DNA of 64,000 nucleotides from Betaproteobacteria bacterium SCN2. Its GTDB lineage: Bacteria > Pseudomonadota > Gammaproteobacteria > Burkholderiales > Thiobacillaceae. Shown piece by piece: positions 3,888-3,963 of the stretch; within the stretch, counting starts at the first letter, position 1, and each line of letters starts with the position of its first letter. The DNA lies in the NCBI GenBank assembly GCA_008923285.1, contig WBSG01000001.1:1-64000 (forward strand), read 5' to 3'. Below the pieces are notes generated by a model. That model did not search any database. It saw nothing but the letters and a program-made list of their open reading frames with translations, and was not told the DNA's origin. A program made the translations under genes and the position numbers.

Positions 3888-3963
3888 TGGTGAAACGGTG
3901 GAGGGTCGAGTTCCCGACCTTCGCATTGCGAACGCGACGCTCTCCCAGCTGAGCTACCGCCCC
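3888..3963 (-). tRNA. tRNA-Ala (anticodon CGC), 3' half altered by the integrated element
   Basis: On the minus strand the 5' half is canonical: acceptor strand GGGGCGG, box A TAGCTCAGCTGGGAGAGC, and an anticodon arm with loop TTCGCAA giving anticodon CGC. The gene encodes the terminal ACCA. The 3' half is weak. The T-loop reads CTCGACC instead of TTCGANN, the T-stem has two mismatched pairs, and the acceptor 3' strand CCGTTTC pairs through three G-U wobbles. The integrase-bearing element joins at this 3' side, so this half may come from the element. The gene may be a poorly functional or pseudo-tRNA. GCG codons could still be read by tRNA-Ala(UGC). Confidence 0.75.

What the first reader, a model, noticed from the sequence alone, without database searches (positions are those of the whole stretch)
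3888..3963. tRNA-Ala(CGC) with an intact 5' half and a degraded 3' half at an element junction
The acceptor 5' strand, D-arm and anticodon arm are canonical, but the T-loop lost its TTC, the T-stem has two mismatches and the acceptor 3' strand needs three G-U pairs. Integrases normally restore the tRNA with a perfect copy. Here the element-derived half seems diverged, so integration may have damaged the gene. GCG can still be read by tRNA-Ala(UGC), which would make the loss tolerable.
Basis: partly seen in the sequence, partly recalled or inferred. Interest (0 to 1): 0.5.

Follow-up and report, generated by a model that had tools for sequence, protein, structure and literature searches.

The report
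Alanine tRNA damaged by inserted element
A mobile DNA element has inserted into an alanine tRNA gene and seems to have replaced its second half with a worn copy, while an intact foreign gene of the same kind sits on another piece of the genome and may make up for the loss.

Summary
Window 3963..3888 (minus strand) is a tRNA-Ala(CGC) gene. Nucleotides 1-52 match six same-genus relatives exactly; six substitutions all lie in nt 53-71 (T-arm and acceptor 3' strand). Its Rfam score, 37.7 bits, is the lowest of the 40 tRNAs found in the genome; 19 relatives' copies score 58.9-62.0.

It is most likely the left end of an integrated element. A tyrosine integrase starts 734 nt from the tRNA 3' end, after a terminator-like hairpin and three arm-site-like repeats. 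In four sibling cases the repeat between both ends begins at tRNA nt 29-31 and runs through CCA, so the changed half is probably element DNA. The kept part covers the likely recombination core. Of 43 sibling-adjacent tRNAs called by ARAGORN, none lost TTC and one has a T-stem mismatch.

Against a complete case: the displaced original 3' half was not found, and decay after integration is not excluded. New: an intact, foreign-type tRNA-Ala(CGC) lies on a 7.9-kb contig with a giant recombinase; distant homologs lie downstream of the integrase in 6 of 12 sibling stretches. Linkage to this element is unproven. If linked, this resembles tRNA-dependent lysogeny, published for actinobacteriophages.

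The parts
3888..3963 (-). tRNA-Ala(CGC) gene with altered 3' half (nt 53-71); G3.U70, A73 and encoded CCA kept
   Evidence: Rfam RF00005 37.7 bits over 3891-3963; comparison with relatives
3976..3981 (-). TATAAT, likely -10 box; the 20 nt before the gene are identical in G001, G005 and G007
   Evidence: sequence; relatives; promoter role inferred
3888..3932 (-). likely element-supplied part of the tRNA: about nt 32 (anticodon loop) through CCA
   Evidence: by analogy: repeats at both ends of four sibling cases begin at tRNA nt 29-31
3852..3879 (-). intrinsic-terminator-like hairpin with U run, just after CCA
   Evidence: fold; the corresponding hairpin lies inside the end repeat in two of four sibling cases; 43-nt stretch 93% identical in G007
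3812..3847 (.). three TGGGCCA direct repeats every 11 bp (3812-3840) and one inverted copy (3841-3847): likely integrase arm-type sites
   Evidence: (0 in 100 shuffles) for the three; the fourth read; repeats of similar kind behind many sibling tRNAs; role inferred
3523..3741 (+). small HTH regulator (HTH_26), 72 aa
   Evidence: Pfam; homologs beside sibling integrases
3137..3370 (-). 77-aa ORF between HTH and integrase, excisionase-like by position only
   Evidence: translation; DNA similar in siblings; no Pfam match
1885..3153 (-). tyrosine integrase, 422 aa, Arm-DNA-bind_2 + Phage_integrase; its start is 734 nt from the tRNA 3' end
   Evidence: Pfam; relatives; distance
903..1892 (-). HD-domain protein, 329 aa; homologs follow the integrase in 8 of 12 sibling stretches
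   Evidence: Pfam; homologs

Best explanation
The gene is the left attachment junction (attL) of a mobile element. The tyrosine integrase recombines in the anticodon loop, so about nt 32-76 and probably the terminator come from the element. The element's copy of the tRNA 3' half drifted while its integrase-recognised core (anticodon arm and just beyond) was kept, so integration put a worn T-arm and acceptor strand onto a sound 5' half. The promoter, terminator, G3.U70, A73 and CCA remain, so an RNA is probably made, but it should fold and work poorly. The loss is tolerated because the genome has another intact tRNA-Ala(CGC) on contig C21, and probably tRNA-Ala(UGC). Shown: the six changes and their place, the integrase and its family's habit of sitting at tRNA 3' ends, the att repeats of siblings, the second tRNA. 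Inferred: that the changes came with the element, loss of function, and compensation.
For: Six changes, all 3' of nt 52, at positions otherwise conserved; 19 relatives 58.9-62.0 bits, window 37.7. The 43 called sibling tRNAs lie 713-1215 nt from the integrase, 11 of the 20 Arg(CCG) ones at 713-735; window 734. Repeats starting at tRNA nt 29-31 mark the other end in 3 of 5 sibling elements tested (G089, G189, G290; none in G418, G374) plus a tandem pair in Zoogloea oleivorans. Of the 43 sibling tRNAs, 43 keep TTC and 42 have no T-stem mismatch; 8, all tRNA-Met, have one acceptor mismatch. Predicted T-arm pair probability is 0.00, versus 0.29 in the relatives' gene and 0.96 on C21; the cloverleaf lies 10.2 kcal/mol above the minimum, versus 3.7 in the relatives' gene. 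Window 1-3890 is 56.9% G+C, 3990-20000 is 65.8%. Intact second tRNA-Ala(CGC), 61.6 bits.
Against: The displaced original 3' half is not in the readable assembly (32-nt pattern, up to 3 mismatches); contig C27 begins inside the element and nine small contigs read N throughout. G007 shares the terminator-like stretch and has a 64-nt match to the element's HTH gene nearby, yet an intact 3' half, so an element of this kind may have sat there with a sound copy; the shared stretch could also be chromosomal. G007 also has a second, different tRNA-Ala(CGC) (that draft has 8% contamination), so a spare gene need not go with a damaged one. If decay came after integration, all six changes 3' of nt 38 has a chance of about 0.013, small but not decisive. 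The fold prediction for the normal gene is itself poor. No RNA data.
Confidence: 0.6

Rival explanations
1. Decay after integration: the element restored a good copy, then a second tRNA-Ala(CGC) was acquired (C21) and the old gene lost its constraint.
For: Spare intact gene present; G007 keeps an intact copy near a remnant of a related element; the displaced tRNA fragment in the Zoogloea tandem junction has lost 5 nt, so unused halves do decay.
Against: No change in nt 1-52 against six same-genus relatives, nor in the 20 nt upstream against G001, G005 and G007; all six changes in nt 53-71 (6e-4 for nt 53-76 if even).
Confidence: 0.22
2. The tRNA is unusual but functional: identity pair G3.U70, A73, CCA, anticodon and promoter are kept.
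For: Rfam still accepts it at 37.7 bits; promoter-like and terminator-like sequences look intact; GCG is 35% of alanine codons in 25 window ORFs, so a need exists.
Against: T54C, A53xC61 and G49xA65 hit T-arm positions invariant in 28 of 28 relatives; lowest score of 40 tRNAs; 43 of 43 ARAGORN-called sibling tRNAs keep TTC.
Confidence: 0.12
3. Assembly artefact: a chimera of an element-bearing and an element-free strain, or local error.
For: Draft genome of 27 contigs; some relatives' contigs end at or near this tRNA (G001, G021).
Against: Six clustered changes inside an otherwise clean, continuous att-arm-integrase arrangement at the spacing of the siblings; completeness 99.86%, contamination 0. 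A chimera would still show a real element end.
Confidence: 0.05

Closest known systems
tRNA-dependent lysogeny of actinobacteriophages (Guerrero-Bustamante and Hatfull 2024, PMC10865867; abstract and sections 10 and 11 read)
   Same: Tyrosine integrase with arm-binding domain, attB in a host tRNA gene, a junction that does not give back a sound tRNA, and an intact tRNA of the same isotype elsewhere.
   Different: There the phage's own tRNA is shown to be needed and the listed cores of non-rebuilding phages are 8-17 bp. Here a worn but recognisable 3' half remains, about 22 nt from the anticodon loop are unchanged, the genes recognised in the 3.9 kb of element seen are not phage structural genes, and the second tRNA is not shown to be on the same element.
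Ordinary tRNA-gene integration with restored 3' end (Islander, PMC4383910: start of abstract seen in the search listing only; Williams 2002: recalled, seen only as a reference in PMC9897764)
   Same: Integrase, arm-like repeats, att in the tRNA from the anticodon loop to the 3' end, as in the sibling elements.
   Different: The restored half is not a sound copy.
Different integrase at the same tRNA-Ala(CGC) in G005
   Same: Same genus, same tRNA gene, tyrosine integrase right behind it.
   Different: Arm-DNA-bind_3 type, with no match to the window integrase at E 1e-5; the readable 3' half is canonical.

Membership tests
tRNA-gene integrative element with tyrosine integrase | Tyrosine integrase near a tRNA 3' end on the same strand | tested here: met
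   734 nt
tRNA-gene integrative element with tyrosine integrase | tRNA 3' part repeated at the other end of the element | tested here: inconclusive
   Not found in the readable assembly or in the 3.9 kb of element on the contig; contig ends inside the element
tRNA-gene integrative element with tyrosine integrase | Sound tRNA restored at attL | tested here: not met
   Six substitutions, two T-stem mismatches; function itself not measured
tRNA-dependent lysogeny | Junction tRNA not functional | tested here: inconclusive
   Predicted poor; no RNA data
tRNA-dependent lysogeny | Short attP/attB core (8-17 bp in the paper's table) | tested here: not met
   About 22 nt unbroken from nt 31 to 52, judged against relatives' genes as stand-in for attB
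[quoted passage not shown]
   Intact tRNA-Ala(CGC) on C21 with a giant recombinase; no contig-end link to C27
tRNA-dependent lysogeny | Element-borne tRNA needed for survival of the integrated state | not testable with these tools
   Needs genetics

The most novel reading that the evidence does not exclude
Contig C21 is part of the same element: the element carries its own intact, foreign-type tRNA-Ala(CGC), which freed its attP from having to rebuild the host gene. The window would then catch the half-way stage of the switch from tRNA restoration to tRNA replacement, in a non-actinobacterial element that may not be a phage.
Probability: 0.25. Interest if true: 0.65.

Novelty: new variant of a known kind. 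Interest (0 to 1): 0.47.

Why it matters
Elements that use tRNA genes as docking sites are usually said to give the gene back intact. A junction whose recombination core is kept but whose tRNA-only part has worn away would separate what the integrase needs from what the host needs. With a second, foreign tRNA of the same kind in the genome it offers a possible intermediate for how tRNA-dependent integration evolves; the discussion of PMC10865867 leaves that order of events open.

Tried and rejected
Second attachment site: original half not found in own genome (32 nt, up to 3 mismatches); nine small contigs read N throughout and could hide it. The chromosomal neighbour taken from G006 gave no match in G000, so the far side of the element could not be placed. 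Contig-end overlaps: C27 start shares nothing with the other readable ends compared; C21 ends share repeats with C8 and C14. The RES toxin gene on C21 has relatives in the tRNA-Ala islands of G005 and G007, but a further copy on C8 lies beside HipA and antiporter-like genes, so this link to the tRNA-Ala locus is weak. Clean hybrid of two good tRNAs: rejected, because the T-stem mismatches lie inside the element-side half. No copy of the altered half in viral contigs (24-nt exact pattern); the junction region has no match in phages, and 12 plasmid records match, none over 80% of the query. C21's p331: no relative in viral contigs or in 398 other genomes of the order (E 1e-10). Bias: the 43 sibling tRNAs were picked by ARAGORN, which misses the window gene; so 52 of the 64 siblings without such a call were scanned with Rfam. 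Their hits near the integrase were intact tRNAs on the other strand or, in L120, one cut by the contig end; none was degraded. 12 siblings were not scanned. The 107 sibling loci collapse to 97 when loci with the same first 600 nt of integrase are merged, and the 43 tRNAs to 23 sequences.

Full report
What is there. Window 3963..3888 on the minus strand encodes a tRNA-Ala(CGC). The acceptor 5' strand, D-arm and anticodon arm are canonical. The 3' half differs at six places from the sequence found in 17 of 28 relatives' genes: G53A, T54C, T59C, T65A, C69T, C71T (28 of the 29 loci L007-L035 gave a readable gene). Five of these positions are invariant in 28 of 28; position 69 is C in 27 of 28. Of eight same-genus relatives, six have the full canonical gene, one (G005) is canonical where it can be read, and one (G003) gave no match. 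The gene scores 37.7 bits, the lowest of the 40 tRNAs found in its genome, against 58.9-62.0 for 19 relatives' genes. ARAGORN does not call it.

The junction. Behind the tRNA 3' end come a terminator-like hairpin (3852-3879), three TGGGCCA repeats spaced 11 bp (3812-3840; none in 100 shuffles), an HTH gene, a 77-aa ORF without a Pfam match and a tyrosine integrase with an arm-binding domain (1885-3153). An HD-domain gene follows. Window 1-3890 has 56.9% G+C, 3990-20000 has 65.8%. The contig, C27, begins at window base 1, by this reading inside the element.

The family. Searches with the integrase gave 27 places in 18 of 399 genomes of the order at E 1e-100, own genome included; the best 80 of 97 loci in named genomes, among them Zoogloea, Azonexus and other betaproteobacteria as well as gammaproteobacteria such as Marinomonas; and one viral contig. 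This makes 107 sibling loci, 97 after merging those with the same integrase start. Of the 107, 43 have an ARAGORN-called tRNA on the same strand between 600 and 1300 nt before the integrase: Arg(CCG) 20, Pro 9, Met 9, Val 3, Arg(ACG) 2. Their distances are 713-1215 nt; 11 of the 20 Arg(CCG) ones lie at 713-735, the window gene at 734. All 43 keep TTC, 42 have no T-stem mismatch, and 8, all tRNA-Met, have one acceptor mismatch, probably as initiators. Since ARAGORN chose these, 52 of the remaining 64 were scanned with Rfam; no degraded tRNA showed up near the integrase, one (L120) being cut by a contig end.

Where the crossover lies. In 3 of 5 sibling elements tested, a repeat of the tRNA 3' part marks the other end: G089, 49 of 49 nt from tRNA nt 31 at 21.1 kb; G189, 100 nt from nt 30 including the terminator-like hairpin, 95%, at 14 kb; G290, 64 nt from nt 29, 90.6%, at 38.8 kb. 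G418 and G374 gave none in the DNA fetched. In Zoogloea oleivorans two integrase loci on one contig share such a repeat from nt 31 through the hairpin, 80 of 92 positions. So in these cases everything from the anticodon loop on, in two of four with the hairpin, belongs to the repeated att region. The similar hairpin in G007 can be read either way: G007 has a 64-nt match to the element's HTH gene 1.5 kb behind its intact tRNA, so it may be an element remnant, or the hairpin may be chromosomal.

How it most likely works. The changes start beyond the part of the tRNA that the integrase must recognise and spare it. That is what drift of an element-borne copy under selection for recombination, but not for a tRNA, would leave. 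Even scatter over the gene would put all six in nt 53-76 with a chance of 6e-4, or all 3' of nt 38 with 0.013. Folding puts the T-arm probability at 0.00, against 0.29 for the relatives' gene and 0.96 for the C21 gene; the low value for the relatives' gene shows that this is weak support. Decay after integration remains possible. The expected attR with the original half was not found, though nine small contigs read N throughout.

The back-up. The genome has a second tRNA-Ala(CGC), intact (61.6 bits), on contig C21 of 7,887 bases. Ten of 398 other genomes of the order match it at E 1e-18 or better, 86-92% identical; nine of the ten are in other families, one in another genus of the same family. 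The search of the eight same-genus relatives, made with the window's own gene, listed no further gene resembling it, but G007 has a second tRNA-Ala(CGC) of another type at a contig end (8% contamination). The C21 gene therefore looks foreign, while a second such gene is not unique to this genome. Beside it lie p331, without relatives in 398 genomes, and a 1,867-aa giant recombinase. Distant homologs of this recombinase occur downstream of the integrase in 6 of 12 sibling stretches of 4-40 kb; in G290 it lies between the two att repeats. The genome, however, holds two integrases of this family, here and at tRNA-Arg(CCG) on C12, and a second giant-recombinase gene at the end of C6. C27 and C21 could not be joined. 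In the sibling stretches ARAGORN found no tRNA other than the target tRNAs and neighbouring or further tRNA-Met copies, so a cargo tRNA is not a general habit of the family. GCG makes up 35% of 2,024 alanine codons in 25 window ORFs, so a working reader is needed. tRNA-Ala(UGC) was not found in this and three other same-genus drafts, but two copies are in the complete relative G010; the rRNA operons are probably collapsed in the drafts.

What is known. tRNA-dependent lysogeny (PMC10865867; abstract and sections 10 and 11 read) describes phages whose integration does not rebuild the host tRNA and which carry a replacement; its authors leave open which came first and cite Lj965 of Lactobacillus johnsonii as a possible case outside actinobacteriophages. 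tRNA fragments left by elements are widely known (PMC9897764; abstract and passages). Text searches (listings of 12, 15, 12 and 0 papers) showed no paper that I recognised as this exact situation; that is not proof that none exists.

Verdict. A real, worn tRNA at a real element junction, most likely worn on the element's side. It is a variant of a known kind of event, made more interesting by a foreign spare tRNA whose linkage is the open question.

Noticed in passing
L036 (contig C21) 414-489 and 1990-7593: Intact foreign-type tRNA-Ala(CGC) beside a 1,867-aa ORF with a Phage_integrase match at residues 1345-1497; distant homologs lie downstream of the integrase in 6 of 12 sibling stretches.
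   Followed up: partly
L044 27-102 (G007 contig C25): A second tRNA-Ala(CGC) of another type in same-genus draft G007, at a contig end; that draft has 8% contamination.
   Followed up: no
L075, tRNA-Arg(CCG) before the integrase: Looks like a hybrid tRNA: 5' strand GCGCTCG with 3' strand CGGGCGC (one U.G pair) and A73.
   Followed up: no
L076, L077 versus L083, L090, L149: Zoogloea tRNA-Arg(CCG) genes next to these elements have two different T-arms on the same 5' half, each well paired: possible block exchange of the 3' half.
   Followed up: no
L222/L223 (G089): A 21-kb element lies between tRNA-Met copies, with a 49-nt attR followed by another full tRNA-Met.
   Followed up: partly
window 42131-42339 and 41353-41537: Cobalamin riboswitch (+) and 6S RNA (-) found by Rfam.
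   Followed up: no
Paraburkholderia terrae plasmids NZ_AP024960.1 and NZ_AP025261.1: 80% match to the tRNA-Ala(CGC) and part of the region behind it, with no gene listed there in the incomplete gene table.
   Followed up: no
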